Shown piece by piece: positions 284-39,845 of a stretch of DNA of 40,838 nt. Source of the stretch: an uncultured Microbacterium sp. (lineage in GTDB: Bacteria; Actinomycetota; Actinomycetes; Actinomycetales; Microbacteriaceae); assembly GCA_913774845.1 (NCBI GenBank), contig CAJYJO010000052.1, forward strand, positions 1 to 40,838. Reading direction: 5' to 3'. The notes under the pieces are model-generated. The model did not search any database. It saw only the letters and a list, made by a program, of their open reading frames with translations, and was not told the origin of the DNA. Numbering within the stretch: position 1 is the first letter of the stretch; each line of letters begins with the position of its first letter. The translations under genes and the position numbers were made by a program.

Positions 284-937
284 GTGAGCGACGACGCCCT
301 GCGGGAGGCAGCAGAGACCATGCGGGCGGTGCGCGAACGCTGCGCCTGGACGAAGACGATCGACCACCGCGACCTCGTGCCCTACCTGGTGGAGGAGAGC
401 GCCGAGGTCATCGACGCCGTCGAGACCGGCACGCGCGCCGACCTGCGGGAGGAACTCGGCGATCTGCTGTGGCAGGTGCTGTTCCACGCCGAGATCGCCG
501 CGGGCGATGCCGACGATCCCTACGACATCGACGACGTGGCACGGGGTCTCACCGAGAAGATGGTGCGGCGTCATCCGCACGTGTTCGGTGACGCCGTGGC
601 ATCCACTCCCGAAGAGGTGCTCGTGCACTGGAACGCAGCGAAGGCCGCCGAGAAGAACACGCGCACCAGCGTGCTCGACGGGGTCAGCGACCACATGCCC
701 GCTCTCGCGCTGGCACAGAAGCTCGTGGGCAAGGCCGCCCAGGTGGGGGTACCGGTCCCCGCGCACCGGCTGGCCGATCCGGAGACCGAGGTCGAGCTGG
801 GCGACGCGCTGCTGACGCTCGTCCAGCTCGCGCGGGCACGGGGCTGGGACGCCGAGCGGGCGCTCCGAGAGCGTCTGCGCGCCCTCCGCGCCGATGTCCG
901 CATGGTGGAGGAGCGCGCCCCGTCCGAGCGCGCCTGA
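284..937 (+). CDS. mazG: MazG family nucleoside triphosphate pyrophosphohydrolase
   Basis: Cytoplasmic house-cleaning enzyme expected to hydrolyse (d)NTPs to the monophosphate and pyrophosphate, removing aberrant nucleotides. The 217-residue protein carries the MazG metal-binding pattern: an EExxE-type block (EESAEVIDAV) followed by EELGDLLWQ, then a helix with LFHAEIA. The GTG at 284 was chosen because a strong GGAGGGAG ribosome binding site lies just upstream (271-278) and family similarity begins there. A longer in-phase GTG at 134 gives an unrelated N-terminus. At this length it is a single-domain actinobacterial form rather than the two-domain E. coli form. In M. tuberculosis mazG (Rv1021) also lies just before eno, which fits the gene order seen further right. 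Confidence 0.92.
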   Translation: MSDDALREAAETMRAVRERCAWTKTIDHRDLVPYLVEESAEVIDAVETGTRADLREELGDLLWQVLFHAEIAAGDADDPYDIDDVARGLTEKMVRRHPHVFGDAVASTPEEVLVHWNAAKAAEKNTRTSVLDGVSDHMPALALAQKLVGKAAQVGVPVPAHRLADPETEVELGDALLTLVQLARARGWDAERALRERLRALRADVRMVEERAPSERA

Positions 938-1071
938 GCGCGACCCATCGCCGTCGCGAGACCACCCGATCGGCGCAACCTCGCACGCGCCGACGCCGCT
1001 CTTCCGCGTGATCTCGCGTGGAACGGGCGCTCGCGTGCGCCCTGCGTGCACGGCGGTTCGCCCGAGGCTGG

Positions 1072-1077
1072 AACAAT
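1072..1077 (+). promoter_or_regulatory. putative -10 element for leaderless hisS
   Basis: The hexamer AACAAT lies exactly 6 nt before the GTG at 1084, the spacing seen for many leaderless genes in this window. It matches the TANNNT consensus imperfectly because the first T is missing. Confidence 0.3.
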
Positions 1078-1083
1078 GGACGG

Positions 1084-2358
1084 GTGGCATCCGTGAACCC
1101 GCCGCGCGGCATGCGCGACTTCCTCCCCGCCGACAAGGCCCGTCGCGAGCGCGTGCTCGCCGTCATCCGTCAGCGCTACCGCGCGCACGGCTTCGACGAG
1201 ATCGAGACCCCGGTGATGGAGGAGTACTCGCGCCTGCACGCGGGCCTCGGCGGCGACAACGAGAAGCTGTCGTTCAGCATCCTGAAGCGGGGGATGGATG
1301 CCGAGGGCATCCGCGCGGCCGCCGACGACCCCGCCGCTCTCGCCGACCTCGGTCTCCGCTACGACCTGACGGTCCCGCTGGCGCGTTTCTTCGCGACCAA
1401 TCGGGCGCAGCTGCCCTCGGTCTTCCGCGCGATCCAGATCGCCCCGGTCTGGCGGGCCGAGCGTCCGCAGAAGGGCCGGTACCGCCAGTTCGTGCAGTGC
1501 GACATCGACATCATCGGCGACGCCTCGGCGCGCGCGGAAGCCGAGCTCATGACCGCGAGCCTCGACGTGCTCGACGCGCTCGGGCTCGAGGGCGGCTCGA
1601 TCCGCGTCAACGACCGCCGCGTGCTCGACGCGATGCTCGACGTGTTCGGTTTCGCCCCCGACGAGCGCCCGGGCGTGCTCATCACCATCGACAAGCTCGA
1701 CAAGATCGGCCCATCCGGTGTCGTGGCGGAGCTGCGCGAGCGCGGGGCGACCCCCGCGGCGGCCGACGCGTTCGCCGCGTACCTCGACCGGCCCGCGGCG
1801 GTGCCGGCGTTCGATGAGGCGGGGATCCGCGCGGCGCTTCCCGCCGGCATCCCCGACGAGGTCATCGCGCACCTCGTCGCTCTCGGCGAGACGGTCGCCG
1901 CGGCGCGCGGAGCCGACGCGCCGCTCGTCTTCGACCCGTTCCTCGTGCGCGGCATGGGGTACTACACCGGCACGATCTTCGAGCTGGCCCACCCGAGCGT
2001 CGACTACTCGCTCGGCGGGGGCGGACGCTACGACGGCATGATCGGGCGCTTCCTCGGCCAGCAGGTTCCCGCCGTGGGCTTCTCGATCGGCTTCGAGCGC
2101 ATCGTCGACCTGTTGCAGGATGCCGCCGACTCGGCCGACCGTTCGATCGTGCTCGTGCACGACCGCGACGTTCCGCTCGCGCAGCTGCTCGGGCTCAAGG
2201 CGGCCCTCGTCGCAGACGGCGCCCGCGTACGCCTCGAGCAGCGCCCGAAGAACCTCAAGGCCCTGCTCGAGCGGGCGACCGCCGACGGCTACACGGCGTT
2301 CGCGGCGGTCGGTGCCGACACCACCGCGGAGACGCTCGAGGTCAAGCCGCTCGGCTGA
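1084..2358 (+). CDS. hisS: histidyl-tRNA synthetase
   Basis: Class II aminoacyl-tRNA synthetase that charges tRNA-His in the cytoplasm. The 424-residue protein starts with the typical actinobacterial NPPRGMRDFLP. It shows RYDLTVPLARFFA (class II motif 2 region), GYYTGTIFELAHP (histidine/adenylate pocket), GGGGRYDGMIGRFLG and a C-terminal anticodon-binding domain with RPKNLKALLERA. The start was set at GTG 1084 because conserved sequence begins there and no ribosome binding site supports the longer in-phase GTG at 1018. A -10-like hexamer 6 nt upstream suggests a leaderless transcript. The gene ends only 12 bp before the converging regulator gene, with a small inverted repeat (2364-2369 / 2375-2380) between them. 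Confidence 0.95.
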   Translation: MASVNPPRGMRDFLPADKARRERVLAVIRQRYRAHGFDEIETPVMEEYSRLHAGLGGDNEKLSFSILKRGMDAEGIRAAADDPAALADLGLRYDLTVPLARFFATNRAQLPSVFRAIQIAPVWRAERPQKGRYRQFVQCDIDIIGDASARAEAELMTASLDVLDALGLEGGSIRVNDRRVLDAMLDVFGFAPDERPGVLITIDKLDKIGPSGVVAELRERGATPAAADAFAAYLDRPAAVPAFDEAGIRAALPAGIPDEVIAHLVALGETVAAARGADAPLVFDPFLVRGMGYYTGTIFELAHPSVDYSLGGGGRYDGMIGRFLGQQVPAVGFSIGFERIVDLLQDAADSADRSIVLVHDRDVPLAQLLGLKAALVADGARVRLEQRPKNLKALLERATADGYTAFAAVGADTTAETLEVKPLG

Positions 2359-2370: not shown

Positions 2371-3228
2371 TCACGCGACCGCGCTGATCAACGCCTCGCT
2401 CGGGCTCTCGGCGGCAAGGCGTTCCAGACGCGCCGCGGTCGCGGCATCGCGGGGAGAGAACCACACCACGCGCGAGCCCAGACCCTCGTCGATCCACAGG
2501 CTCGACATCTCGAGGTTCAGTTCGCCGACGCGGGCGTGCACGAGGTGCTTGCTCGCGTTGCGCTCGCCGCCGACGTCGCCCAGACGCCACAGTTCTGAGA
2601 AGCGCGGCGACATCGCCTCGAGCTCGCCGATGAAGCGCTGCCACGACGGCTCCTCGTGGTGGCGGCCGTACGCGGAGCGCAGACGCGCGGCGATCCGACG
2701 CTGGGCGTGGTCGAGGTCGACGTGCGCGCGCTGCCAGGCCGTGTCGGTGAAGAGCAGCACCGCGCAGTTCCGCCGGTCGGCGGGGAGGTCGTCGAGGTCG
2801 TCGAAGAGGTAGCGGTAGGCCCGGTTGTACGCGCGGATGTCGAAGCGCGAGGTCTGCACCGCGGCGGGGTAGGGGAGGAGCTTCTCGAGCAGGTCGAGGT
2901 GAGTCTGGCCCACGCACATGCGCGCCTCGCGGTCGGGCGCGGGCAGGTCGGCCAGGGCGAACAGGTGGTCGCGCTCGTCGTCGCTGAGGCGCAGGGCGCG
3001 GGCGATGGCCGCGATCACCTGAGCGGAGGCGGCGATCGGCCGACCCTGCTCGAGCCACGTGTACCAGGTGAGCCCGACGCCGGCGAGCTGCGCGACTTCC
3101 TCCCGGCGTAGACCGACGACCCGCCGACGGGCGCCCTCCGGGAGGCCGACGTCGGCCGGTCGAAGACGGGCGCGGCGGCTGCGCAGAAAACCCGCGAACT
3201 CGGCGCGGACGTCGTCGGATCGAGTCAT
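2371..3228 (-). CDS. XRE-family regulator with MmyB-like ligand-binding domain
   Basis: Transcriptional regulator of 285 residues. The N-terminal helix-turn-helix (about residues 10-90) contains GLRREEVAQLAGVGLTWYTWLEQGR, typical of the XRE/HTH_31 group. The C-terminal half (about 110-280) is the MmyB-like, PAS-related ligand domain with YRYLFDDLDDLPADRRN. The ATG at 3228 is preceded by a strong GAGGGAGGG ribosome binding site, so the longer in-phase start is rejected. A TAGGAT -10 on this strand is at 3248-3253. The gene is divergent from an MFS exporter across an intergenic palindrome. In this family the regulator commonly controls a divergent oxidoreductase or MFS gene, so it probably represses or activates its neighbour and itself. 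The ligand is unknown; related domains have been reported to bind fatty-acid-like molecules. Confidence 0.9.
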   Translation of the reverse strand: MTRSDDVRAEFAGFLRSRRARLRPADVGLPEGARRRVVGLRREEVAQLAGVGLTWYTWLEQGRPIAASAQVIAAIARALRLSDDERDHLFALADLPAPDREARMCVGQTHLDLLEKLLPYPAAVQTSRFDIRAYNRAYRYLFDDLDDLPADRRNCAVLLFTDTAWQRAHVDLDHAQRRIAARLRSAYGRHHEEPSWQRFIGELEAMSPRFSELWRLGDVGGERNASKHLVHARVGELNLEMSSLWIDEGLGSRVVWFSPRDAATAARLERLAAESPSEALISAVA

Positions 3229-3297
3229 GGCATCCCTCCCTCGGGCGATCCTAGGACGCGCCCCGGACATCGACCCGGTGGGTGGCAGGTGCTCCCC

Positions 3298-3329
3298 GTA
3301 CCAGGATGAAGGCACTCCTGGTACCAGGA
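3298..3329. promoter_or_regulatory. palindromic operator between regulator and MFS gene
   Basis: Positions 3316-3329 read TCCTGGTACCAGGA, a perfect 14-bp palindrome. A further half-site, GTACCAGGA, lies at 3298-3306. The 11-mer GTACCAGGATG is thus repeated directly at 3298 and 3321. The palindrome covers the expected -35 of the MFS gene (-10-like CATGCT at 3342-3347, 6 nt before its ATG). It is the likely binding site of the divergent XRE/MmyB regulator. Confidence 0.65.
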
Positions 3330-3353
3330 TGCCGTGCTCTCCATGCTGGCACC

Positions 3354-4799
3354 ATGACCACTTCCGCAGAGCCCGCGACCGGCAGCGCGTCCGTGCCGAT
3401 CCGACCCGACGGCACCGCCGACGTCCCCACCTGGCGCTACCTCGGATTCCTCCTCGGACCGGGTGTCGGTACCTTCGCCTTCAACGCGGTGACCGTGATC
3501 CTCCCGACGCTGCGCGAGCGCTTCGGCGCCGGCGACGTCGCCCTCGAACTCGTGATCGCCGGCTACGGCATCCCCTTCGCCGTCCTGCTCATCCTGGGAG
3601 GCCGCCTCGGCGACCGGTTCGGACGCCACCGGCTCTACGCGCTCGGCATGGGGGTGTTCCTCGTCTCCGCGATCGCGTGCGCCCTCGCCCCGTCGATCGA
3701 GACGCTCATCGCCGCCCGTATCGCGCAGGGGGTCGGCGCGGCGCTGTGCACTCCACAGGTGCTCGGGACCATCCAGGCCACGTCGCGCGGCACCGCCCGC
3801 ACCCGCGCCATCGCCGCGTTCGGGGCGAGCGGCGGCATCGGCGCGGCGGTCGGGCAGGTCGCCGGCGGCGCGCTCGCCGCGCTGTCGTTCGGACCCCTCG
3901 ACGGCTGGCGCGCGGTCTTCGTCGTCGTCGCGCTCCTCGCGCTCGCCGCGATCGTCCTCGCCCCTCTCGCGCCGCGCTCGCCGGCGCACGAGGTGGTCGC
4001 GATCGACCTGGTGGGCACGGCGGCGCTGGCCGTCGGCATCCTGGCCGCCTCCGTCGCCCTCACCTTCGGGCCGGCGTGGAACTGGTCGTGGCCGGTGCTG
4101 GTCGTGCTGATCGTGGCGGCGATCGCCCTCGTGGGCATGTGGCGGCACCAGGATGCCATCGAACGGTCCGGCCGCGTCCCGCTCCTTCCTCCGAGCGTGC
4201 TGCGGCTGCGTCCGCTGCAGCTCGGACTGCTCGCGGCGGGACTGTTCTTCGCCGGGTACTCCGCGCTGCTGTACGTCTTCCCGCGCGCCGTCGAGGCCGG
4301 CGGGCTGACGTCGCTGCAGGCGGGGCTGGCGCTGCTGCCGTTCGCGGTGGTGTTCGCCGGGATGTCGCTGGCGGTCGCCCGCATCCAGGCGCGGCTGGGG
4401 GACGCGACGCTCGTCCTCGGCGTCGCCGTGCAGATCGTCGCCCTCCTCGGCATGGTCGCCACCCTGGCGATGGGCTGGGGCAGCGACGTGGGACTGTGGC
4501 TGCAGCCCGCGCTCGTGCTGCTGGGCGCCGGGCAGGCGCTGATCTTCTCACCGCTCACGCAGCTCGTCGTCCGCGAGGTGCCTGTCGAGGCCGCGGGACT
4601 GTCCGGCGGCATGTTCAGCACCGCGCAGCAGCTCGCCCTCTCGTTCGGCGTCATCGTCATCGGTGGTGCGGTGGGCGTCACCGGGGCGGCGGGCCGTGAC
4701 GAGCTCCTCCTGGGGCTCGCGCTCGACATCGCCCTCGCCGTCGCGGTACTCGCCGTGGCACTCGTCCTGCGGGCGCGGGGAGGCCGGGCGCAGCACTGA
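3354..4799 (+). CDS. MFS transporter, probable drug/metabolite exporter
   Basis: Inner-membrane secondary transporter of 481 residues, the size of 14-helix DHA2 (EmrB/QacA) exporters. Motif A is clear at residues 82-97 (GGRLGDRFGRHRLYAL). The glycine-rich GASGGIGAAVGQVAGGAL matches the antiporter motif C region of proton-coupled exporters. Many hydrophobic segments follow, with a hydrophilic break near DAIERSGRVPLLPP. The ATG at 3354 was preferred to the GTG/ATG starts further upstream because those would run through the operator. A leaderless arrangement is possible. The gene is divergent from an XRE/MmyB regulator and is followed by a strong hairpin, so it is probably monocistronic and ligand-inducible. 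The substrate cannot be told from sequence. Confidence 0.9.
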   Translation: MTTSAEPATGSASVPIRPDGTADVPTWRYLGFLLGPGVGTFAFNAVTVILPTLRERFGAGDVALELVIAGYGIPFAVLLILGGRLGDRFGRHRLYALGMGVFLVSAIACALAPSIETLIAARIAQGVGAALCTPQVLGTIQATSRGTARTRAIAAFGASGGIGAAVGQVAGGALAALSFGPLDGWRAVFVVVALLALAAIVLAPLAPRSPAHEVVAIDLVGTAALAVGILAASVALTFGPAWNWSWPVLVVLIVAAIALVGMWRHQDAIERSGRVPLLPPSVLRLRPLQLGLLAAGLFFAGYSALLYVFPRAVEAGGLTSLQAGLALLPFAVVFAGMSLAVARIQARLGDATLVLGVAVQIVALLGMVATLAMGWGSDVGLWLQPALVLLGAGQALIFSPLTQLVVREVPVEAAGLSGGMFSTAQQLALSFGVIVIGGAVGVTGAAGRDELLLGLALDIALAVAVLAVALVLRARGGRAQH

Positions 4800-4802
4800 G
4801 CC

Positions 4803-4834
4803 CTCGGCATCCCGAACAGACGCGGGATGCCGAG
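4803..4834 (+). terminator. hairpin terminator made of two facing GGATGCC motifs
   Basis: CTCGGCATCCCG (4803-4814) and CGGGATGCCGAG (4823-4834) form a perfect 12-bp stem with an 8-nt loop, directly after the MFS stop codon. There is no T-run. Both arms contain the over-represented GGATGCCR/YGGCATCC octamer. Confidence 0.7.
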
Positions 4835-4902: not shown

Positions 4903-5724
4903 ATGCGCACGCGTCGACCGGTGACCCTGACCGCGGCGTCCCTGGTCGCCGTCGCCGGGGCGGGGGCGGTGGGGCTGCGCACCCTCATCGCCCGTCAGGC
5001 CGCGATCGCGCGTCGCCGCATCGGCAAACCGCTCGGCGAGCAGGCGCTCGACGCCGACCGGGTGTGGCGGCGCAAGAAGCATCCGGGGGAGCCGGTCGAG
5101 CTGCTCGTGCTCGGCGACTCGATCGCCGCGGGGCTCGGCGCGGGCCATCGCCGCGACACACTCGGCGCCCGTCTCGCCAAGGGCATCGCGCGCGAGGCGG
5201 GGCGGCCCGTGCGGCTGCGCACCGCCGCGGTCGTGGGGTCGGAGACCTCCGCGCTCGCGGGCCAGATCGCGGCGCTCCCGGCGGGGTACCGGCCGGATGC
5301 CGCGGTCATCGTCGTCGGCGGCAACGACGTGACGCACCGCGTTCCGGCATCCCGCTCCGCGGAGCAGCTGGGGGAGGTCGTGCGCGACCTGCGGAGCCGC
5401 GGCGTGCCGGTCGTGGTCGGCACGTGCCCCGACCTCGGCACTCTGCGCGCGATCCCGCAACCGCTGCGCGCCCTCGCCGCGCGGTCGTCGCGGCAGCTCG
5501 CGTCGGCCCAGGCCGCGGCCGTGCATCGGGCGGGAGGGCGGGTGGTGGCGCTCGCGCGGTCCGTGGGTCCGGTTTTCGCGGAGCGGCCCGACGAGATGTT
5601 CAGCGTCGACCGCTTCCATCCCAGCGCGCTCGGCTATCGGCGCACGGCCGAGGCGCTGCTGCCGGCCGTGCTGGCAGCGCTGGAGACGTCGGGCCGGCGC
5701 GGGGGAGACCCGGCACCCGGGTGA
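4903..5724 (+). CDS. membrane-anchored SGNH/GDSL hydrolase
   Basis: Likely esterase or lipase-like hydrolase of 273 residues. An N-terminal hydrophobic segment (about 8-30) would act as signal anchor, placing the catalytic domain outside the membrane. SGNH blocks are visible: GDSIAAG with the nucleophile Ser73, VVGGNDV with the oxyanion Asn, and DRFHPS with the Asp/His pair near the C-terminus. The ATG at 4903 was chosen because it gives a proper signal anchor and full family length; a TGTCAT hexamer 6 nt upstream may be its -10. It stands alone between two hairpins. The substrate is unknown; this group contains many uncharacterised actinobacterial members. Confidence 0.85.
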   Translation: MRTRRPVTLTAASLVAVAGAGAVGLRTLIARQAAIARRRIGKPLGEQALDADRVWRRKKHPGEPVELLVLGDSIAAGLGAGHRRDTLGARLAKGIAREAGRPVRLRTAAVVGSETSALAGQIAALPAGYRPDAAVIVVGGNDVTHRVPASRSAEQLGEVVRDLRSRGVPVVVGTCPDLGTLRAIPQPLRALAARSSRQLASAQAAAVHRAGGRVVALARSVGPVFAERPDEMFSVDRFHPSALGYRRTAEALLPAVLAALETSGRRGGDPAPG

Positions 5725-5866: not shown

Positions 5867-6724
5867 ACGCCTCCCGTCGATGTCTTCCTCAGCACCTGGC
5901 GCGCCGATCCGCTCACGCTCGGCGCGCTCTTCGTGGCATCCGTCGCGTACCTGCTCGGCGTGCGTCGGCTGCGACGCGGGGGCGGGAGTTGGCCGCTTCG
6001 ACGCACGATCGGGTTCTTCGTGCTCGGCCTGGCGCCCTACGCGGTCATCGAGCTCGGCTTCCTCGGGGCCTTCTCGTCGCAGCTGCGCTGGGCCTTCTCG
6101 ACCCGTATCGCCCTGCTGCTCTTCGCCGTGCCGGCGGGGATCGCCGCGGGTCGCCCACTCGACCTGATCCCGCAGGGGGTCCGGGAGCGCATCCTCGGCT
6201 CGCGCGTCGCCCGCGTCTTCGGCAACGCCATGGTCGCTACCGTGGTGATCGCCGCGGTCTTCTGCCTGTTCCTCACGCCGGTCGCCGGCATCCTGCGCGT
6301 GGATCCCGTCGCCGAGTCCTCGCTGGGGATCCTCGTGCCCCTCGTCGGGCTCGCGATGGTGCTGCCCATGATGGCGCTGGGCGCCGTGCACACGGGCACG
6401 TTCATCGCGATCGAGTTCCTGCTCGCGTTCGTCGAGCTGCTCATCGACTCCGTCCCGGGCCTCCTCTTGCGGCTCAACGACTCCGTGCTGGACCTGATCC
6501 CGGATGCCACGCACGCGGTGTCGTGGTGGCCGTCGATGCTTCACGACCAGCACCTCGCGGGCGACATGATCTGGTTCATCGCCGAGTTCGCCGACGTGCC
6601 GATCCTGGTCGTCCTGATGATCCGGTGGATGCGCAGCGACCGCGTCGAGGCGCGGGGGTTCGATGAGCTCTCGGACGAGGAGTACGACGAGATGACCCGC
6701 GCTCACCTGCGCGGAGAGCGTTGA
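5867..6724 (+). CDS. ctaG: cytochrome c oxidase assembly protein, CtaG type
   Basis: Polytopic membrane protein of the caa3_CtaG family, which helps insert copper into the cytochrome oxidase CuA/CuB centres. About seven hydrophobic segments are visible. Family features are DVFLSTWRADPL at the N-terminus, WWPSMLHDQHLAGDMIWFIAEFADVP near the C-terminus and a His-containing segment around GAVHTGTFIAIEFLLAF. The start is unusual. The conserved N-terminal residues are encoded upstream of the first canonical start (GTG 5933), and no ATG/GTG/TTG is in phase between 5834 and 5933. An ACG at 5867 sits 6 nt after a good -10, so I place the start there; GTG 5933 would cut into the first helix. Either ACG initiation or a sequence error is possible. 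The C-terminus is charged and cytoplasmic. Confidence 0.82.
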   Translation, partial: TPPVDVFLSTWRADPLTLGALFVASVAYLLGVRRLRRGGGSWPLRRTIGFFVLGLAPYAVIELGFLGAFSSQLRWAFSTRIALLLFAVPAGIAAGRPLDLIPQGVRERILGSRVARVFGNAMVATVVIAAVFCLFLTPVAGILRVDPVAESSLGILVPLVGLAMVLPMMALGAVHTGTFIAIEFLLAFVELLIDSVPGLLLRLNDSVLDLIPDATHAVSWWPSMLHDQHLAGDMIWFIAEFADVPILVVLMIRWMRSDRVEARGFDELSDEEYDEMTRAHLRGER

Positions 6725-6755: not shown

Positions 6756-7433
6756 GTGCCCACTCATGAAGACGTCGACGCCTTCCTGACCGAGACCCTG
6801 GTCGGGTCCGACCCCGCGGGAGCGGCCGCGCTCGCGGCCCAGCACGACGCCGGTCTGCCGGCGATCGAGGTCGCCCCCGTGAACGCGAAGTTCCTGCACC
6901 TGCTCACGCGCATCGCGGGCGCTCGCCGGGTGCTCGAGATCGGCACCCTGGGCGGCTACTCCACCATCTGGTTCGCTCGCGCGGTGGGACCGCAGGGGAC
7001 GGTCGTGACCATCGAGGCCGAGTCCGCGAACGCCGCGCTCGCGCGTCGCAACCTCGAGCACGCGGATCTCGCTGCTCGGGTCGAGGTGCGCGTGGGACGC
7101 GGCGCCGACGTTCTGCCGACGCTCGAGGGGCAGGAGCCGTTCGACCTCGTCTTCATCGACGCCGACAAGGAGTCGAACGAGCTGTACCTCGACTGGGCCG
7201 CGCGCCTCGGCCGCCCCGGCACCGTCGTCGTGCTCGACAACGTGGTGCGCGGCGGCGAGGTCGCCGACGCCGGAACGCCCGACAGCAAGGTGCAGGGCGC
7301 TCGCCGCGGCATCCTCATGCTCGGCACCGATCCCCGGTTCGACGCCACCGCGCTGCAGACCCTCGACCGGAAGGGGTGGGACGGGGTGGCCGTGGCGATC
7401 CTGGTGCATGCCGGGGCGGGCCCCGGAGCCTGA
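6756..7433 (+). CDS. SAM-dependent O-methyltransferase (family 3, COMT-like)
   Basis: Cytoplasmic class I methyltransferase of 225 residues. The SAM-binding motif I is VLEIGTLGGYST (residues 59-70). The family 3 O-methyltransferase signatures are DLVFIDADKESNELYLDWA, with the metal-binding Asp, and VVLDNVVRGGEV with a metal-binding Asp/Asn. The mid-region has PVNAKFLHLL. The full length matches caffeoyl-CoA or catechol O-methyltransferase homologues that need a divalent metal. The GTG at 6756 has no ribosome binding site but a -10 6 nt upstream, so it is probably leaderless. The physiological substrate is unknown; neighbours give no clue. Confidence 0.9.
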   Translation: MPTHEDVDAFLTETLVGSDPAGAAALAAQHDAGLPAIEVAPVNAKFLHLLTRIAGARRVLEIGTLGGYSTIWFARAVGPQGTVVTIEAESANAALARRNLEHADLAARVEVRVGRGADVLPTLEGQEPFDLVFIDADKESNELYLDWAARLGRPGTVVVLDNVVRGGEVADAGTPDSKVQGARRGILMLGTDPRFDATALQTLDRKGWDGVAVAILVHAGAGPGA

Positions 7434-7443: not shown

Positions 7444-8988
<1,545 letters not shown>

Positions 8989-9114: not shown

Positions 9115-9160
9115 CGCTCGCGGCCCGAATCCCGGGCGGAACGACGACGGAAGGGATGCC

Positions 9161-22551: not shown

Positions 22552-22583
22552 GAGGGCCGGGATGCCGAGGCGTCCCGGCCCTC
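22552..22583 (+). terminator. phoH2 intrinsic terminator
   Basis: GAGGGCCGGGA (22552-22562) and TCCCGGCCCTC (22573-22583) form a perfect 11-bp stem, 11 nt after the phoH2 stop codon. Confidence 0.8.
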
Positions 22584-27723: not shown

Positions 27724-27953
27724 CAGCTCTCTCCGTCTTCGCCGCGAGCGGCGTCGAGGCGACGCTTTGCCCCCAGGAGCCACTCCTCGCACCGGGCGTA
27801 GAGCTTCTCGCCGCGCTCCCAGAGGGCGAGCGACTCCTCGAGCGTCGGCGCGCCCTGCTCGAGCTCGGCCACGACGCGCACGAGCTCGTCGCGAGCCTGC
27901 TCGAACGAGAGGGAGGCGACGTCGGCGGCGGAGCCGGGGGTCGTCGCGGTCAT
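27723..27953 (-). CDS. xseB: exodeoxyribonuclease VII small subunit
   Basis: Small helical subunit of exonuclease VII, which degrades single-stranded DNA together with XseA. The 76-residue protein has [54 protein letters not shown], matching XseB throughout. The ATG at 27953 is 7 nt from a TAGAAT -10, so the gene is probably leaderless and has its own start, although it follows xseA by only 10 bp. An ATG three codons earlier is possible. The 3' end overlaps the DUF4245 ATG (ATGA). Confidence 0.94.
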
Positions 27954-27960
27954 GGCATCC

Positions 27961-31029: not shown

Positions 31030-31075
31030 CGCGGCATCCCGTGTCCCCAGTGAACGAGGGAGAGGGGATGCCGCG
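31030..31075 (+). promoter_or_regulatory. inverted repeat of facing GGATGCC motifs abutting the sigma gene start
   Basis: CGCGGCATCCC (31030-31040) and GGGATGCCGCG (31065-31075) form a perfect 11-bp stem whose 3' arm ends at the base before the GTG at 31076. The loop and arm include the GGGAGAGGGG ribosome binding region. It can be the DUF6264 terminator, a translational control hairpin for the sigma factor, or both. Confidence 0.5.
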
Positions 31076-31579
31076 GTGCGAGACGAACACGCGCAGCTGA
31101 CCGCGTTGTACGACGCGCACGCGACACCCGTCTGGCGATACGTGGTGAGTCTCACCGGCGATCACGCCGGAGCCGACGACGTCGTGCAGGAGACCCTGCT
31201 GCGCGCCTGGCGCACGCCGCGCGTGATGAAGGACGACCCGGCGTCGCTGCGGTCGTGGATGTACACGGTCGCCCGCAACATCGTCATCGACGAGGCGCGC
31301 AGCGCCCGCCGGCGGCACGAGCAGCCCGTCGACGTGCTCCCCGAGACCGTCCGCGACGACGACACGGATGCCATGTTCGACGCGCTCCTGGTGGAGGAGG
31401 CGCTCGCGACCCTGACCCCGGATCACCGTGCCGTCATCGTCAGCGCCTACTACGGCGGGCGCAGCGTCGCCCAGACCGCCGAGGAGCTCGGCATCCCCTC
31501 CGGCACGGTCAAGTCTCGACTCCACTACGCGGTGCGGGCCCTGCGGCTCGCCCTGCAGGAAAGGGGGGTGACGCGGTGA
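31076..31579 (+). CDS. ECF-type sigma-70 family RNA polymerase sigma factor
   Basis: Extracytoplasmic-function sigma factor of 167 residues. Region 2 (about 6-75) contains LYDAHATPVWRYVVSLTGDHAGADDVVQETLLRAWR and LRSWMYTVARNIVIDEARS. Region 4 (about 105-160) contains LTPDHRAVIVSAYYGGRSVAQTAEELGIPSGTVKSRLHYAVRALR. It resembles the SigL/SigK-type ECF sigma factors of actinobacteria that pair with zinc-finger anti-sigma factors. The next gene overlaps its stop by 4 nt and encodes such an anti-sigma factor. GTG start with a purine-rich leader. The regulon is unknown. Confidence 0.92.
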   Translation: MRDEHAQLTALYDAHATPVWRYVVSLTGDHAGADDVVQETLLRAWRTPRVMKDDPASLRSWMYTVARNIVIDEARSARRRHEQPVDVLPETVRDDDTDAMFDALLVEEALATLTPDHRAVIVSAYYGGRSVAQTAEELGIPSGTVKSRLHYAVRALRLALQERGVTR

Positions 31580-32280
31580 GCATCGACCACGAGCGTCTGG
31601 CGACCTGGGACGGCGCCTACGTCCTCGGAGCCCTGTCGGCCACGGATCGGGCCGAGTTCGAAGCGCACCTCGCCGACTGTGCGGCATGCCGGGAGGCCGT
31701 CGCGGAGCTCGCGCCGACCGCGGGTCTTCTGTCGCGCCTGTCCGCCGAGCGGGCGCGGGCGATCGGTCCGAGCACCGGTCCCGTGCCGATCGCGGCACCG
31801 GACCCGGCCCTGCGCGACCGGGTCGTGCATGCCGCCCGCCGTCGCCGTGCGCGTCGGACCACGGCGTGGGTGCTGGCGGCATCCATCGCCCTCGTCGGGG
31901 TCGCCGTGCCGAGCGTGGTCGCCCTGACCGGTCTCGCGCAGCAGCCCGCGGGGACCGTGTACGCGCTCGACGACGTCGCCGATGCGCCCCTGGAGGCGTC
32001 GGTCAAGCTGACGTCGGCTCCGTGGGGGACGCGCATCGACCTCGTGTGCCAGTACACCGGCGAAGTGCTCGACGCTCCGCCGGGCGGATGGCCCTACGCC
32101 CTGGCGATCACCGACGACTCCGGGGCGACGAGCGTGCTGTCGACGTGGCGTGCCGGGCCGGGATCGACGACGGAGTTGAGCGCCGGAACCGATCTGTCGG
32201 CCGCCGACATCGGCGCGGTCGAGATTCGCACCCTCGACGGCGACCGCGTCGTGATGCGACGGGACTTCGCGACGCCCTAG
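31576..32280 (+). CDS. membrane anti-sigma factor with zinc-finger (ZAS) domain
   Basis: Anti-sigma factor of 234 residues, cognate to the preceding ECF sigma. The N-terminal cytoplasmic ZAS/zf-HC2 domain has the H-x3-C-x2-C motif at His31, Cys35 and Cys38 (AHLADCAACREAV). A single membrane helix is at about 96-118. The extracytoplasmic domain resembles the RskA C-terminal domain (GTVYALDDVADAPLEASVKLTSAPWGTRIDLVCQY). Two features point to signal-dependent release, by thiol oxidation at the zinc site or regulated proteolysis, but which one is not shown. GTG overlaps the sigma stop (GTGA). Its TAG stop is also the first half of the -10 of the next gene. Confidence 0.9.
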   Translation: MSIDHERLATWDGAYVLGALSATDRAEFEAHLADCAACREAVAELAPTAGLLSRLSAERARAIGPSTGPVPIAAPDPALRDRVVHAARRRRARRTTAWVLAASIALVGVAVPSVVALTGLAQQPAGTVYALDDVADAPLEASVKLTSAPWGTRIDLVCQYTGEVLDAPPGGWPYALAITDDSGATSVLSTWRAGPGSTTELSAGTDLSAADIGAVEIRTLDGDRVVMRRDFATP

Positions 32281-32289: not shown

Positions 32290-32835
32290 ATGCCCCGTCT
32301 CGTCGCCGTCTGCGCCGTCCACAGCCTGCATCCGGATGCTGGATCGGTCGGTGTGACCGCGATCGACAAGCGCGCGGTCGAGGGTGCGGTCAGGCTCGGC
32401 CCCCTCGGCGTCCGCGCCGACGTGCAGGCCAGCCGCAAGCACCACGGCGGTCCCGACAAAGCCGTCTACGCCTACGCGCAGGACGATGCCGCGTTCTGGG
32501 AGGAGGAGCTCGGCCGGGAGCTGCACCCCGGGTGGTTCGGCGAGAACCTGCGGGTCGAGGGTCTCGACGTCAACGGTGCGCGCATCGGGGAGATCTGGCG
32601 CATCGGCGACACCGTCGAGGTCGAGGTGACCATGCCCCGCACGCCGTGCGCGACCTTCGCGCGGTGGGTGGGCGGTTCCGCTGCGCGCGGGTGGGTCAAG
32701 CGCTTCTCCGACGAGGGGCGTCTCGGCGCTTACCTCCGGGTCCGTCGGGCGGGGGAGGTGCGGGCGGGGGATGCCATCGAGGTGCTGTCGTCGCCCGCGG
32801 GGGCGCAGACCGTGCTCGAGATGTACCGGAGCTGA
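32290..32835 (+). CDS. MOSC domain-containing protein, YiiM-like
   Basis: Protein of 181 residues made almost entirely of a MOSC domain, the molybdenum cofactor-binding fold of Moco sulfurase C-termini. Visible are GVRADVQASRKHHGGPDKAVYAYAQDD, ELHPGWFGENLRVEGLDV, IGEIWRIGDTVEVEVTMPRTPC with the conserved Cys120, and a C-terminal ALxV-like GDAIEVL. E. coli YiiM of this type reduces N-hydroxylated compounds. Which substrate is used here is unknown. Leaderless ATG. Confidence 0.9.
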   Translation: MPRLVAVCAVHSLHPDAGSVGVTAIDKRAVEGAVRLGPLGVRADVQASRKHHGGPDKAVYAYAQDDAAFWEEELGRELHPGWFGENLRVEGLDVNGARIGEIWRIGDTVEVEVTMPRTPCATFARWVGGSAARGWVKRFSDEGRLGAYLRVRRAGEVRAGDAIEVLSSPAGAQTVLEMYRS

Positions 32836-32989: not shown

Positions 32990-33020
32990 GGGGGCCCGGG
33001 GTTGCCGGCATCCGGAGACG

Positions 33021-33066: not shown

Positions 33067-34095
<1,029 letters not shown>

Positions 34096-34272: not shown

Positions 34273-35262
34273 ATGGTGAGCCTGACTGCCGACATGAGCC
34301 CTCTGCACCCCGACCGCAACCTGGCGCTCGAGCTGGTGAGGGCGACGGAGGCGGCATCGATCCGCGCCGTGCCGTTCATCGGTCGCGGCGACAAGGAGGC
34401 CGCCGACGGGGCGGCCGTCGATGCGATGCGCGCCTTCTTCAGCACCGTCAACTTCGACGGCACGATCGTGATCGGCGAGGGCGAGAAGGACAACGCTCCC
34501 ATGCTCTACAACGGTGAGCGTGTCGGCAGCGGCCGTGGACCGCAGTGCGACGTGGCCGTCGATCCGATCGACGGCACCTCGCTGACCGCCGCCGGTCGTC
34601 AGAACGCGCTCTCGGTGATCGCCGTGTCGGATCAGGGCACGATGCTCGACGCCTCCAGCGTCTTCTACATGGACAAGCTCGTCACGGGTCCCGCCGGCGT
34701 CGGCGTGGTCGATATCCGGCTCCCGATCGGTGAGAACATCCGCCTGTTGGCGAAGGCCCTGGGCAAGCCCGTCGACGAGATCGTCGTGTCGGTGCTGAAC
34801 CGGCCCCGCCACGAGAAGCTGATCGCCGACATCCGCGAGGCCGGGGCCGGCACCCGTCTGATGAGCGACGGCGACGTCGCTGGCGGCATCAATGCCGCCC
34901 GTCACAACGCCCGCACCGACATGTGCGTCGGCATCGGCGGCAGCCCGGAGGGCATCGTGACCGCGTGCGCGATCAAGGCGCTCGGCGGCCACATCCAGGG
35001 CATTCTCGCTCCGCGCACCGACGACGAGAAGAACAAGGGTCAGGATGCCGGCCTCAAGGTCGACGGCACGGTGTACGAGGCGGATGACCTCGTCAAGGGC
35101 AAGAACACGATCTTCGTCGCCACGGGCGTGACCGACGGTCAGCTCGTGCAGGGGGTGCGCCGGGAGGGCGACTTCCTCTACACGGAGAGCGTCGTGCTGC
35201 GCGGTGCGTCGGGAACGCTCCGCCGTATCTCGTCGGAGCACCTGACGTCGAAGTGGCTGTGA
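34273..35262 (+). CDS. glpX: class II fructose-1,6-bisphosphatase
   Basis: Gluconeogenic phosphatase hydrolysing fructose 1,6-bisphosphate to fructose 6-phosphate. The 329-residue protein has the metal-binding blocks IGEGEKDNAPML (68-79) and VDPIDGTSLTAAG (96-108), then RPRHEKLIADIREAGAGTRLMSDGDVAGGI and GIGGSPEGIVTACAIKALGG. It is the main FBPase type of actinobacteria (GlpX, Rv1099c in M. tuberculosis). Probably leaderless from a TACAGT -10. Placement back-to-back with fba allows joint control of the FBP node. In M. tuberculosis glpX sits beside fum and DUF4245 instead. Confidence 0.97.
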   Translation: MVSLTADMSPLHPDRNLALELVRATEAASIRAVPFIGRGDKEAADGAAVDAMRAFFSTVNFDGTIVIGEGEKDNAPMLYNGERVGSGRGPQCDVAVDPIDGTSLTAAGRQNALSVIAVSDQGTMLDASSVFYMDKLVTGPAGVGVVDIRLPIGENIRLLAKALGKPVDEIVVSVLNRPRHEKLIADIREAGAGTRLMSDGDVAGGINAARHNARTDMCVGIGGSPEGIVTACAIKALGGHIQGILAPRTDDEKNKGQDAGLKVDGTVYEADDLVKGKNTIFVATGVTDGQLVQGVRREGDFLYTESVVLRGASGTLRRISSEHLTSKWL

Positions 35263-37265: not shown

Positions 37266-37859
37266 TCAGGCGACCGCGCGCTCGTCGGGCTCGGCGGCGA
37301 TCTGCGACACCCGGACGCCGAGGTGAGCGGCGAGGGCGTGCACGTCGTCGACGCCCGCGCGCCGGGCGCAGTCGATCGTGATCTCCGCGCACGCCACGGC
37401 ATCGGCCAGGGCGTCGTGGTGCGCGAAGGGGGTGCACCCCGCCTCGGCCGCGACGAGCGGGAGGCGGTAGGAGTCGAGCGTGTACGTCTTGCGCGACATC
37501 TGCACGCTGCACATGTAGCGGTAGGGCGGGCACTCGTCGCCGGTCGCGGCGCACGCGCGTCGCAGCACGGACATGTCGAAGCCCGCGTTGTGAGCGATCA
37601 GCACGTCGGCCCCCGCGAAGGCGGTCAGCTTCTCGAGCTGCGCCGACCACCCGAGTGCGTTCGCGACGTCGGACGGCCGGATGCCATGGATCCCGACGTT
37701 GATCGGAGCGAAGTGGTCGTGACCGGCCGGCGGTTTGATCAGCCACGCCGCGGTGGCGACCACTCGACCGTTGCGCACACGGGCCAGACCCACCGCGCAC
37801 GCGGACGCGCCGCTGGAGTTCGCCGTCTCGAAGTCGATCGCGGTGAAGTCCAGAGCCAC
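37266..37859 (-). CDS. DEDDh-family 3'-5' exonuclease
   Basis: Exonuclease of 197 residues resembling the DnaQ/PolC epsilon domain. Exo I is at DFETAN (Asp9, Glu11), Exo II at LIAHNAGFDMSVLRRA, and Exo III at HHDALADAVACAEI, with the His-x4-Asp typical of DEDDh enzymes. GTG 37859 is preceded by GAGGGTGGG and begins right at the fold. It could be a proofreading, RNA-processing or repair exonuclease. It lies 54 bp upstream of rmuC on the same strand, so the two DNA-metabolism genes may be co-transcribed, although rmuC has a possible -10 of its own. Confidence 0.92.
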   Translation of the reverse strand: MALDFTAIDFETANSSGASACAVGLARVRNGRVVATAAWLIKPPAGHDHFAPINVGIHGIRPSDVANALGWSAQLEKLTAFAGADVLIAHNAGFDMSVLRRACAATGDECPPYRYMCSVQMSRKTYTLDSYRLPLVAAEAGCTPFAHHDALADAVACAEITIDCARRAGVDDVHALAAHLGVRVSQIAAEPDERAVA

Positions 37860-37969
37860 GATCCCACCCTCACCCGCGTCGGCACGGGGGAGGTGAGGCG
37901 CGCCGAGGTCGGTGGCATCCGGTGCTCGAAAGGGCGCAAGCGGCCACGGATGGTGTCGATGGGTCGGCG

Positions 37970-37982: not shown

Positions 37983-38732
37983 ATGACCGATCGCGAGAAG
38001 TCGACCTCGTTCGGGCAGGCGGCTTCCGCCTACGAGTCCGGTCGTCCCGGGTATCCGGCCGAGGCCGTGGCGTGGATGCTCGAGCCCGTCCGGGAACCGG
38101 GGCGCGCCCTCCGCGTCGCCGATGTCGGTGCCGGAACGGGAAAGCTCACGCGCGCCGTCGTCGAACTCGGCGCCGACGTCGTGGCCGTCGATCCGGATGC
38201 CGACATGCTCGCCACCCTGCGGCAGAACGCGCGGGGCGTGCCGACGTTCGTGGGCAGGGCCGAGAAGCTGCCCCTGCCGGACTCCGGCCTCGACGCCGTC
38301 GTCATGGGTCAGGCCTGGCACTGGGTCGACGTGGAGGCGGCATCCCTCGAGACCGCGCGCGTGCTGCGCAGCGGGGGAGTGCTCGGTCTGATCTGGAACA
38401 TCCGCGACGATCGCGTCGACTGGGTGCGCCGGCTCACCGCGGCAATGGGCGGATCGAACGCCGAGGTGCTTCTCGCCACGACCGGGCCTCGGGTCGCCGA
38501 GCCCTACGGCGAGCTCGAGCACGGTGAATGGTCGTGGGAGAGGCGCATCACCCTGCCGCAACTGCGCGACCTCGTCGTCTCGCGCAGTGACATCATCACG
38601 GCGAGCCCCGAGAAGCGCGCGGGCATCGATGCCGCGGTCGACGGGGTCGTGGCATCCCTTCCCGGGCTCGCCGACGGCGGGTCGATCGCGCTGCCGTACG
38701 TGACCCACGCGTTCCGCGCCCGCCGGCCCTGA
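37983..38732 (+). CDS. class I SAM-dependent methyltransferase (UbiE/type 11-like)
   Basis: Cytoplasmic methyltransferase of 249 residues. The start FGQAASAYESGRPGYPAEAV is typical of this actinobacterial group. SAM motif I is VADVGAGTGKLTRAVVELG, motif II VVAVDPDADML, motif III DAVVMGQAWHWVD and a later GGVLGLIWNIRDDRVDWV. The substrate is unknown. The ATG has a -10 7 nt upstream and no ribosome binding site. It is divergent from the exonuclease gene and followed 39 bp later by ychF, which has its own -10. Confidence 0.9.
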   Translation: MTDREKSTSFGQAASAYESGRPGYPAEAVAWMLEPVREPGRALRVADVGAGTGKLTRAVVELGADVVAVDPDADMLATLRQNARGVPTFVGRAEKLPLPDSGLDAVVMGQAWHWVDVEAASLETARVLRSGGVLGLIWNIRDDRVDWVRRLTAAMGGSNAEVLLATTGPRVAEPYGELEHGEWSWERRITLPQLRDLVVSRSDIITASPEKRAGIDAAVDGVVASLPGLADGGSIALPYVTHAFRARRP

Positions 38733-38757
38733 CGCGGTGAGGGGTCGCCGGGCCGGG

Positions 38758-38763
38758 TAACCT
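38758..38763 (+). promoter_or_regulatory. -10 element of leaderless ychF
   Basis: TAACCT lies 8 nt before the GTG at 38772; no ribosome binding site is present. Confidence 0.5.
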
Positions 38764-38771
38764 GGACTCCC

Positions 38772-39845
38772 GTGGCTCTTACCATCGGAATCGTCGGCCT
38801 TCCCAACGTCGGCAAGTCGACCCTCTTCAACGCTCTGACCAAGAACTCGGTGCTCGCCGCGAACTACCCGTTCGCGACCATCGAGCCCAACGTCGGGGTC
38901 GTGAACCTTCCCGATGCGCGCCTCGACAAGCTCGCCGAGGTCTTCGGCTCGGAGCGTGTCGTACCGGCCGCGGTGTCGTTCGTCGACATCGCCGGCATCG
39001 TGCGCGGCGCCAGCGAGGGCGAGGGCCTGGGCAACCAGTTCCTCGCCAACATCCGTGAGGCGGATGCCATCGCCCAGGTCGTCCGCGGATTCGCCGACGA
39101 CGACGTCGTGCACGTCGACGGCGCGGTGAACCCCGCGAGCGACATGGAGACGATCAACGCCGAGCTGCAGCTCGCCGACCTTCAGACGCTCGAGAAGGCG
39201 ATCACGCGCTACGAGAAAGAGGTCAAGGGCAAGAAGCTCGACCCCTCGGTGCTCGACGCCGCCAAAGCCGCGCAGGACGCCCTTCAGCGCGGCGTGCTGC
39301 TCTCGGCATCCGGTCTCGACCTCTCGCCCATCCGCGAGCTGGGTCTGCTGACCGCCAAGCCCTTCATCTTCGTCTTCAACGTCGACGAGGCGGTGCTGAC
39401 CGACCAGGCCAAGAAGGATGAGCTCGCGGCGCTCGTCGCTCCCGCGAAGGCCGTCTTTTTGGATGCCAAGATCGAGTCCGAGCTGATAGACCTCGACCCC
39501 GAGGACGCCGCCGAGCTCCTCGCCTCCACCGGTCAGGACGAGTCGGGCCTCGACCAGCTCGCCCGCATCGGCTTCGCCACGCTCGGGCTGCAGACCTACC
39601 TCACCGCGGGTCCCAAGGAAGCGCGCGCCTGGACGATCCCGCAGGGCGCGAAGGCGCCGCAGGCGGCCGGTGTGATCCACACCGACTTCGAAAAGGGCTT
39701 CATCAAGGCCGAGGTCATCTCGTTCGACGACCTCGTCGAGCTCGGCTCCGTCGCCGAAGCCCGCGCGAAAGGCAAGGCCCGCCTCGAGGGCAAGGAGTAC
39801 GTCATGCAGGACGGCGACGTGGTGGAGTTCCGCTTCAACAACTAG
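38772..39845 (+). CDS. ychF: redox-regulated ATPase YchF (Obg-like)
   Basis: Translation-associated P-loop ATPase of the TRAFAC class, 357 residues, binding ribosomes and preferring ATP over GTP. G1 is GLPNVGKST (9-17), switch I NYPFATIEPNVGVV, G3 region VDIAGIVRGASEGEGLGNQFL, the altered G4 FVFNVDE (NxxE in place of NKxD, the ATP-specificity mark), a coiled-coil insert near 120-190 and a C-terminal TGS domain with RAWTIPQGAKAPQAAGVIHTDFEKGFIKAEVI. GTG start, leaderless. It is the last clearly chromosomal gene before the accessory right edge. Confidence 0.97.
   Translation: MALTIGIVGLPNVGKSTLFNALTKNSVLAANYPFATIEPNVGVVNLPDARLDKLAEVFGSERVVPAAVSFVDIAGIVRGASEGEGLGNQFLANIREADAIAQVVRGFADDDVVHVDGAVNPASDMETINAELQLADLQTLEKAITRYEKEVKGKKLDPSVLDAAKAAQDALQRGVLLSASGLDLSPIRELGLLTAKPFIFVFNVDEAVLTDQAKKDELAALVAPAKAVFLDAKIESELIDLDPEDAAELLASTGQDESGLDQLARIGFATLGLQTYLTAGPKEARAWTIPQGAKAPQAAGVIHTDFEKGFIKAEVISFDDLVELGSVAEARAKGKARLEGKEYVMQDGDVVEFRFNN

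What the first reader, a model, noticed from the sequence alone, without database searches (positions are those of the whole stretch)
598..39475. Strongly over-represented octamer GGATGCCR / YGGCATCC that appears to dictate codon choice
Reading both strands I found at least 65 copies of GGATGCC or its complement. With base frequencies of about 0.35 G/C and 0.15 A/T about 10 are expected for the heptamer. All 35 or so GGATGCC copies are followed by a purine, and all but one GGCATCC copy (1306) are preceded by a pyrimidine. The real motif is thus the octamer GGATGCCR, more than ten-fold enriched. Inside genes it appears as GCA-TCC (Ala-Ser) and GAT-GCC (Asp-Ala), although GCA and GAT are otherwise uncommon here. 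Both orientations are about equally frequent, which argues against a replication-polar KOPS or Chi signal. Two facing copies form hairpins at 4803-4834 and 31030-31075, reminiscent of how uptake sequences double as terminators. The motif is absent from the HigBA/IS481 edge and from 1-597. A methylation target, a nucleoid-protein or repair signal, or a DNA uptake-like sequence are all open.
Basis: partly seen in the sequence, partly recalled or inferred. Interest (0 to 1): 0.78.

Follow-up and report, generated by a model that had tools for sequence, protein, structure and literature searches.

The report
Genome-wide strand-specific DNA signal, Microbacterium
This soil-bacterium genome carries one eight-letter DNA word thousands of times, inside and between genes and spaced out separately on each DNA strand, which points to an unknown machine that reads one strand of the cell's own DNA.

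Summary
GGATGCCR occurs 67 times in the window (5.7 expected) and 5,283 times in the Microbacterium genome (reversed control 282). It exceeds synonymous shuffles in all six codon phases and is about tenfold enriched between genes, so codon-pair bias does not explain it. A related genome keeps 71 of 112 aligned copies but 24 of 114 one-mismatch octamers. New here: copies on the SAME strand avoid each other below about 400 bp, while opposite-strand copies do not (second genome). A complete relative shows no replication polarity. Enrichment was not seen in 139 genomes of other families of the order, and some related species use GGATCC or GGATGGC instead. Four related small Microbacterium phages also carry it. 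I conclude that it is a selected or driven, strand-specific DNA signal. My leading mechanism is a Chi-like signal for the AdnAB end-processing nuclease (0.34), ahead of a DNA-uptake word, another strand-read signal, or a methylation-linked HIP-like word. The reader protein is not identified.

The parts
597..604 (-). GGATGCCA
1085..1092 (-). GGATGCCA
1296..1303 (+). GGATGCCG
1845..1852 (-). GGATGCCG
2118..2125 (+). GGATGCCG
3228..3235 (-). GGATGCCA
3327..3334 (+). GGATGCCG
3566..3573 (-). GGATGCCG
4034..4041 (-). GGATGCCG
4151..4158 (+). GGATGCCA
4805..4812 (-). GGATGCCG, left arm of hairpin with 4825-4832
4825..4832 (+). GGATGCCG, right arm of hairpin with 4805-4812
5295..5302 (+). GGATGCCG
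5345..5352 (-). GGATGCCG
5934..5941 (-). GGATGCCA
6286..6293 (-). GGATGCCG
6502..6509 (+). GGATGCCA
7307..7314 (-). GGATGCCG
8601..8608 (+). GGATGCCA
8745..8752 (+). GGATGCCA
9154..9161 (+). GGATGCCG
9195..9202 (-). GGATGCCA
9610..9617 (+). GGATGCCG
10397..10404 (-). GGATGCCA
10728..10735 (+). GGATGCCA
11382..11389 (+). GGATGCCG
13468..13475 (-). GGATGCCG
14190..14197 (-). GGATGCCG
14433..14440 (-). GGATGCCG
14553..14560 (+). GGATGCCG
15010..15017 (+). GGATGCCA
16485..16492 (-). GGATGCCA
16572..16579 (+). GGATGCCG
17516..17523 (-). GGATGCCG
18668..18675 (+). GGATGCCG
19232..19239 (+). GGATGCCG
19650..19657 (+). GGATGCCG
20259..20266 (+). GGATGCCG
20677..20684 (+). GGATGCCG
21642..21649 (-). 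GGATGCCG
22560..22567 (+). GGATGCCG
23805..23812 (+). GGATGCCG
24640..24647 (+). GGATGCCA
24771..24778 (-). GGATGCCA
26048..26055 (+). GGATGCCG
26183..26190 (-). GGATGCCA
27505..27512 (+). GGATGCCA
27953..27960 (-). GGATGCCA
28591..28598 (+). GGATGCCG
29736..29743 (-). GGATGCCG
31032..31039 (-). GGATGCCG, left arm of hairpin with 31066-31073
31066..31073 (+). GGATGCCG, right arm of hairpin with 31032-31039
31366..31373 (+). GGATGCCA
31489..31496 (-). GGATGCCG
31877..31884 (-). GGATGCCG
32769..32776 (+). GGATGCCA
33006..33013 (-). GGATGCCG
33948..33955 (+). GGATGCCG
35043..35050 (+). GGATGCCG
37679..37686 (+). GGATGCCA
37913..37920 (-). GGATGCCA
38195..38202 (+). GGATGCCG
38338..38345 (-). GGATGCCG
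38650..38657 (-). GGATGCCA
39062..39069 (+). GGATGCCA
39304..39311 (-). GGATGCCG
39461..39468 (+). GGATGCCA

Best explanation
GGATGCCR is a DNA-level signal that Microbacterium keeps at about one copy per 1.2 kb on each strand. SHOWN: it is strongly favoured where synonymous choice allows it and is enriched between genes; it is kept in close relatives; a site is less likely to carry it when another copy lies within about 300-400 bp on the same strand, and a copy on the other strand has no such effect. INFERRED: its reader therefore travels along, or reads, one strand in one direction, and a copy serves a stretch of a few hundred bases. Most likely mechanism (inferred): a Chi-like role. An end-processing helicase-nuclease, here AdnAB, enters at a DNA end, unwinds, scans one strand, and on meeting GGATGCCR stops degrading and hands the 3' strand to recombination. 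Ends can arrive from either side, so both orientations are needed everywhere. The exact word drifts between species, giving the dialects GGATGCCR, GGATCC and GGATGGC.
For: DNA-level selection or drive: six of six phases and intergenic DNA enriched; 71/112 copies kept at 82% identity against 24/114 one-mismatch octamers and 27% of all octamers. At YG_TCC sites both GCC and GCG give way to GCA, so one mutational path such as C-to-T deamination does not explain it. Strand-specific saturation: same-strand pairs 0.43-0.84 of expectation in bins from 9 to 400 bp; opposite-strand pairs 0.90-1.19 apart from 2.86 for plus-minus pairs below 30 bp (smaller bins scatter more, on few pairs). Label permutation: 266 same-strand pairs at 50-400 bp against 335.6 +- 12.8, alternations 807 against 647.5 +- 18.1. 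0 of 185 control octamers as low. Seen again in G070 (0.31-0.70 from 30 to 400 bp) and in 31 loci of other species. Among sites able to carry the word, 79% do if a same-strand copy is within 300 bp, 89% otherwise (p 1e-5); other strand 88% and 85%; G070 77% and 87%, p 0.005. AdnAB is present and gives the only two PDDEXK_1 matches in this genome. Four of four small related Microbacterium phages, with no annotated exonuclease or recombinase, carry the octamer 2.5-3 times above synonymous shuffles (0 of 300 each); the pyrimidine variant is not enriched.
Against: No leading-strand polarity, a property of E. coli Chi (passages of PMC8022716). Enrichment and codon dominance are far stronger than I recall for Chi. 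Three words within one genus is fast drift for a core enzyme, and the parts of AdnA/AdnB that I could compare do not group by word: G064 (GGATCC) is nearer G034 (GGATGCCR), 68/76%, than G043 (GGATCC), 62/64%. The palindromic dialect GGATCC shows no repulsion, and for GGATGGC the test is inconclusive. In G070 the closest bin (9-30 bp) is not depleted (0.88, 11 pairs). The phage evidence is one related group, so not independent, and its copies show no end-directed orientation (p 0.59). Phage Min1 also lacks an annotated exonuclease yet has no excess (7 against 7.4), and three larger phages with an exonuclease gene show 1.8-2.2 by the Markov measure, so the link to phage exonucleases is weak. No reader was demonstrated. 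Whether AdnAB responds to Chi was stated to be unknown (passage of PMC4824097).
Confidence: 0.34

Rival explanations
1. DNA-uptake word: competent cells preferentially take in or recombine DNA carrying GGATGCCR, and the word accumulates by molecular drive, as DUS and USS do in Neisseriaceae and Pasteurellaceae. Strand specificity would come from single-strand entry.
For: Abundance, lack of replication skew, presence as facing pairs and dialects inside a family all resemble DUS/USS (abstract of PMC3630211; passages of PMC1939737). ComEC is in 98 of 99 genomes of the genus, the miss being 77% complete; a T2SSE/TadA-type ATPase is in 24 of 24. Micrococcus luteus, another actinobacterium, transforms through Flp pili plus ComEA/EC (passages of PMC4322843). 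The 10 of 156 5-kb tiles with at most one copy average 62% GC, as recently acquired DNA might.
Against: H. influenzae uptake does not depend on USS orientation (passages of PMC1939737), whereas saturation here is same-strand only. Four phages carry the word, which uptake drive does not predict. ComEC and the ATPase are equally present in Microbacterium species without the word. Intergenic density is no higher than coding density (188 observed, 220 expected at uniform density). One search found no paper joining Microbacteriaceae and DNA uptake sequence; the 15 papers listed of 117 do not mention Microbacterium.
Confidence: 0.26
2. Methylation-linked, HIP-like word: a methylase marks GGAT... on one strand and repair guided by the mark protects or creates copies, so the word accumulates as a by-product and saturates once each strand has a mark within range.
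For: HIP1 in cyanobacteria behaves alike: very abundant, linked to orphan methylases, replaced by other words in exceptional genomes, with a model in which an added site stops mattering within about 1000 nt (passages of PMC4390886). Microbacterium has a near-universal beta-type adenine methylase: strong match in 22 of 22 Microbacterium genomes tested and 101 of 110 family genomes; the nine with a weak match or none all have at most about 370 copies per Mb. All three words share GGAT. Phage copies fit too.
Against: That methylase is also present where the word is absent (G088), and what I take to be its recognition region is nearly the same in species using GGATGCCR, GGATCC and GGATGGC. C5 methylase matches are missing in five of the 13 motif-rich genomes tested. 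Actinobacteria are recalled to lack MutS/MutL repair (not tested). Other methylase families were not searched.
Confidence: 0.18
3. Another strand-read chromosomal signal (nucleoid or segregation protein, replication restart, transcription-linked signal).
For: Any one-strand reader with a range of some hundred bases would fit.
Against: No polarity along the chromosome of G070, flat distribution along genes, no sense or antisense preference strong enough for a transcript signal (505 sense, 599 antisense).
Confidence: 0.19
4. Codon-pair or amino-acid bias, mutation bias, or a statistical artefact.
For: Asp-Ala, Gly-Ile and Met-Pro dipeptides are 1.2-1.4 times over-frequent.
Against: 1104 genic copies against 209 in within-gene synonymous shuffles and 284 in context-keeping ones; tenfold in intergenic DNA. 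Context-blind mutation cannot know of a same-strand copy 200 bp away.
Confidence: 0.02

Closest known systems
Chi (crossover hotspot instigator) of RecBCD/AddAB
   Same: short non-palindromic word, orientation matters, abundant, species-specific
   Different: no leading-strand polarity, far denser (1.6 per kb), much stronger codon override (comparison recalled), three words inside one genus; the enzyme here is AdnAB, whose response to Chi was stated to be unknown (PMC4824097)
DUS of Neisseriaceae / USS of Pasteurellaceae
   Same: thousands of copies on both strands, no polarity, facing pairs, dialects within a family
   Different: same-strand-only spacing, copies in some phages, 8 bp core, Gram-positive host, no uptake data
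HIP1 (GCGATCGC) of cyanobacteria
   Same: extreme abundance, replacement by other words in some species, saturation by distance in the published model
   Different: GGATGCCR is not a palindrome, and none of the methylases tested tracks the word
KOPS / SRS for FtsK/SpoIIIE (recalled)
   Same: short, frequent, non-palindromic octamer
   Different: no polarity along a complete chromosome

Membership tests
Chi | Orientation-dependent recognition | tested here: inconclusive
   Same-strand-only saturation implies it; recognition itself was not measured
Chi | Polarised to the leading strand | tested here: not met
   350 plus and 354 minus in 22 stretches around G070; most uneven stretches 13/20 and 18/24
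Chi | Attenuates a helicase-nuclease / stimulates recombination | not testable with these tools
   AdnAB present, activity not testable
DUS/USS | Strong over-representation on both strands without polarity | tested here: met
DUS/USS | ComEC and a pilus-type ATPase in the host | tested here: met
   ComEC 98/99, T2SSE/TadA-type ATPase 24/24; ComEA was not located
DUS/USS | Word enhances DNA uptake | not testable with these tools
   no transformation data
DUS/USS | Effect independent of orientation (H. influenzae USS, PMC1939737) | tested here: inconclusive
HIP-like words | Palindrome | tested here: not met
   GGATGCCR is not palindromic; the GGATCC dialect is
HIP-like words | Cognate methylase whose presence and specificity track the word | tested here: inconclusive
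   not so for PF01555 and PF00145; other methylase families not searched
KOPS/SRS | Polarity towards the terminus | tested here: not met
Codon-pair bias | Disappears under synonymous shuffling and outside genes | tested here: not met

The most novel reading that the evidence does not exclude
GGATGCCR and its dialects are the regulatory stop signal of AdnAB, the third bacterial class of end-processing helicase-nucleases, for which no signal is known. It would be set at gene-scale density on each strand, drift to new words between species of one genus, and be copied by small phages that depend on host end-processing.
Probability: 0.28. Interest if true: 0.92.

Novelty: new variant of a known kind. 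Interest (0 to 1): 0.77.

Why it matters
Each leading reading would fill a gap. A word read by AdnAB would answer whether that enzyme class is regulated by Chi, stated to be unknown in PMC4824097 (passages read). A word read during DNA uptake would be, to my recall, the first uptake word outside Gram-negative bacteria. In either case the word could restrict which DNA recombines between species, and the dialects make that testable inside one genus that has many isolated phages (98 Microbacterium records in one terminase search). The same-strand spacing test separates one-strand readers from orientation-blind ones using sequence alone and can be applied to DUS, USS, Chi and HIP1.

Tried and rejected
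Replication polarity: an apparent run of plus-strand copies in the listing was a listing effect; counts in the stretches are balanced. Methylase as dialect reader: not supported for the universal PF01555 protein nor for C5 methylases. AdnAB whole-gene exchange as the cause of the dialect switch: not seen in the partial genes held (the earlier version, read minus-strand loci in the wrong strand and is discarded). ComEC exchange: no sign, but the alignment is poor for several genomes, and the ORF taken there as ComEA was wrong, so ComEA was not tested. Deamination of GGACGCC: GGACGCCR is not depleted overall and non-deamination sources are displaced too. G088 and Curtobacterium show no dialect that I could find. 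In one search the printed labels of the two antisense phases are swapped: YG|GCA|TCC is 287 against 6.1, Y|GGC|ATC|C is 281 against 138. The first control set for spacing held only 11 words, one of them part of the motif; with 185 words replaces it.


Full report
What was checked. The window holds 67 copies of GGATGCCR against 5.7 expected. The genome that contains it (G000, 3.37 Mb, 55 contigs) holds 2631 on one strand and 2652 on the other, against 142 and 140 for the reversed control word. Nearest named relatives of a window protein (GlpX, 97-98% identical) are Microbacterium testaceum, M. hydrothermale and unnamed Microbacterium. The window is ordinary chromosome: histidyl-tRNA synthetase, enolase, fumarase, exonuclease VII, LytB/IspH, GlpX, YchF.

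Is it more than codon bias? In 803,739 bases of this genome (the window plus the stretches), with 655 genes called by my own simple scorer, 1104 copies lie in genes. Synonymous shuffles within genes give 209 (largest of 60: 230); shuffles that also keep the neighbouring bases give 284 (largest of 20: 310). All six phases are enriched, including those with rare amino acids (Met-Pro 39 against 10, the CAT phase 31 against 2.5, Gly-Cys 9 against 1.3). In 129 kb between called genes GGATGCCG occurs 143 times against 12.9 and GGATGCCA 40 against 4.0, while GGATGCCC and GGATGCCT stay at 4 and 4 (all). Asp is GAT in 83% (106/128) and 88% (351/400) of G_GCC_A and G_GCC_G contexts, and in 0 to 24% of other contexts.

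Is it kept? Between this genome and G070 (82% identical over 72 kb) 71 of 112 aligned copies are conserved, against 24 of 114 one-mismatch octamers and 27% of all octamers. In 11 named relatives picked from the 80 loci, with 17-25 aligned copies each, six at 83-87% identity keep 52-80% of copies against 27-39% of all octamers; five at 77-78% keep 10-29% against 17-21%, so positions turn over while density can stay. This is what a dispensable-in-place but collectively favoured signal should do.

Spacing. Pair counts show repulsion of copies on the same strand (observed/expected 0.43, 0.51, 0.58, 0.74, 0.84 in bins from 9 to 400 bp, then 0.96-1.04) and none between strands, apart from an excess of close plus-minus pairs below 30 bp (finer bins). 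Orientation alternates along the genome, 807 changes against 475 non-changes. Permuting orientation labels on fixed positions gives 647.5 +- 18.1 changes, and 335.6 +- 12.8 same-strand pairs at 50-400 bp where 266 are seen. None of 185 other frequent octamers has a same-strand ratio as low (mean 1.31, lowest 0.78; motif 0.67) or as much alternation. The effect is seen again in G070, sampled in 22 stretches around its chromosome (0.31-0.70 at 30-400 bp, but 0.88 on 11 pairs below 30 bp), and in 31 of 43 Microbacterium loci chosen for more than 0.6 copies per kb. Whole-genome forward and reverse counts are more equal than chance in the 63 of 99 genomes with more than 3000 copies (mean squared deviation 0.46 of binomial, p 7e-5), but less equal in the other 36 (1.83), so over all 99 the mean is 0.96 (numbers typed). 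A sharper test uses only places where a synonymous choice decides whether the word exists: 258/327 (79%) carry it if another same-strand copy is within 300 bp, 767/860 (89%) otherwise, p 1e-5, each of three codon classes alone p below 0.01. For opposite-strand copies it is 88% and 85% (p 0.051; one class alone, Asp-Ala, 90% and 83%, p 0.015, so if anything upward). The 32 sites more than 2 kb from a same-strand copy carry it less often (66%), as motif-poor tracts would (all). In G070 the figures are 122/159 and 371/427, p 0.005; opposite strand 87% and 82%, p 0.09. This is the main new result: the benefit of a copy saturates per strand.

Distribution. In 99 genomes sampled in the genus, totals run from 466 (a 44% complete genome; 538 among the rest) to 6592. 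Many other genera of the family are enriched and others not (199 genomes). In 139 genomes of other families of the order the highest density is about 405 per Mb, against 1569 per Mb here. Groups beyond the order were not sampled.

Dialects. In the genus, GGATCC occurs 470-1908 times in 96 of 99 genomes and 6067, 6168 and 8244 times in three (G043, G057, G064). These three have near-background GGATGCCR (544, 538, 903). In named loci, nine with GGATCC at 2.9 times expectation or more (three Microbacterium, two records labelled only Actinomycetota, two Leucobacter, two Clavibacter) all have GGATGCCR at 0.4-1.3; M. paludicola (L091) is intermediate in both (1.9 and 2.3). G032 instead has CGGATGGC/GGATGGCC (coding 132 against 38, intergenic 19 against 2.1). 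At codon level: G|GAY|GCC|R is GAT in 86-88% in G000 and G070, 31% in G057 and 40% in G032; G|GAY|CCN is GAT in 76-91% in GGATCC species, 38-55% in G000 and G070; G|GAY|GGC followed by C or G is 56-57% in G032 and 3-15% in G000 and G070. GGATCC shows no repulsion, and GGATGGC is inconclusive (255 copies), so I cannot claim that all three words work alike.

Phages. Eleven were examined. Efeko, Jahseh, Clownery and Bodhi17 (17 kb; three labelled Orlajensenviridae, the fourth a near relative) hold 14, 15, 17 and 14 genic copies against 5.6, 5.4, 6.1 and 4.7 in synonymous shuffles, 0 of 300 reaching the count in each; the pyrimidine variant is not enriched. Four other Microbacterium phages, Min1, Lahqtemish, Softsoap and Didgeridoo, show 0.9, 1.8, 1.8 and 2.2 of a Markov expectation; by synonymous shuffles Lahqtemish shows 8 against 7.4 (the other three were not shuffled). 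Curtobacterium phage Buldak and Arthrobacter phages Chestnut and Maja are at 0.8, 0.0 and 1.6. Lahqtemish, Softsoap and Didgeridoo have an annotated exonuclease; Min1 has none and still no excess, which weakens any rule linking the word to phage nucleases. The four small phages are related (Efeko and Jahseh 78.5% identical where aligned, 6 of 12 copies kept), so they are one observation in evolutionary terms, and the counts of the host species were not measured.

Candidate readers. AdnAB: two adjacent PDDEXK_1 genes in this genome and no third match; the second matches solved UvrD/REP-type helicase chains of 1095 residues, which I take to be mycobacterial AdnB (E 3e-125; the species is recalled), the first has a weaker UvrD domain plus nuclease. 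Competence: ComEC 98/99, T2SSE/TadA-type ATPase 24/24. Methylases: a PF01555 adenine-type protein in all 22 Microbacterium tested, strong in 101 of 110 family genomes, nearest solved relatives by sequence RsrI, then others including CcrM, but not dialect-specific. None tracks the word.

Literature. Searches for the heptamer itself (5512 papers hold the string, 20 listed, none on genome signals by title), for uptake words in Microbacteriaceae (none), for such motifs in Actinobacteria, competence in Microbacterium and over-represented octamers brought up no description of this word in their listings. This covers open-licence papers only. Passages were read of PMC1939737, PMC4390886, PMC4322843, PMC8022716, PMC4824097 and PMC2843746; the abstract of PMC3630211; the first of three parts of PMC2346458.

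Verdict. A real, selected or driven, strand-specific signal (my confidence about 0.95). Mechanism not settled: Chi-like 0.34, uptake 0.26, other strand-read signal 0.19, methylation-linked 0.18, codon or mutation bias 0.02.

Noticed in passing
L200:3117-4082 minus strand (G000 contig 30), and equivalents in L201-L219: An adenine-type DNA methylase (PF01555, RsrI/CcrM relatives) is in all 22 Microbacterium genomes tested and strong in 101 of 110 Microbacteriaceae; its target is unknown and it may be a CcrM-like regulator of this family.
   Followed up: partly
G043, G057, G064; loci L089, L090, L093, L096, L101, L126, L127, L128, L130: GGATCC is about 3-4 times over-represented (6,000-8,000 copies in each of the three genomes) where GGATGCCR is near background.
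   Followed up: partly
L271, L272, L275, L276, L277, L278, L280: GGATCC is scarce in seven of nine actinobacterial phages counted (for example 0 against 19 expected in Buldak, 2 against 12.8 in Lahqtemish; not in Min1, 26 against 27.4), which suggests host restriction at that site.
   Followed up: no
G034, G098, G043, G057, G064, G032, G088 AdnA genes: The AdnA nuclease domain matches PDDEXK_1 in two pieces (insertion near profile position 133) in these 7 of 20 genomes and in one piece in the other 13, apparently marking two clades of the genus.
   Followed up: no
own sample, 10 of 156 5-kb tiles: Tiles with at most one copy average 62% GC; motif-poor, low-GC tracts look like recently acquired islands and could be mapped with the word.
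   Followed up: no
window 14041-16047 minus strand: An AlkZ-like DNA glycosylase (PF06224) is encoded in the window.
   Followed up: no
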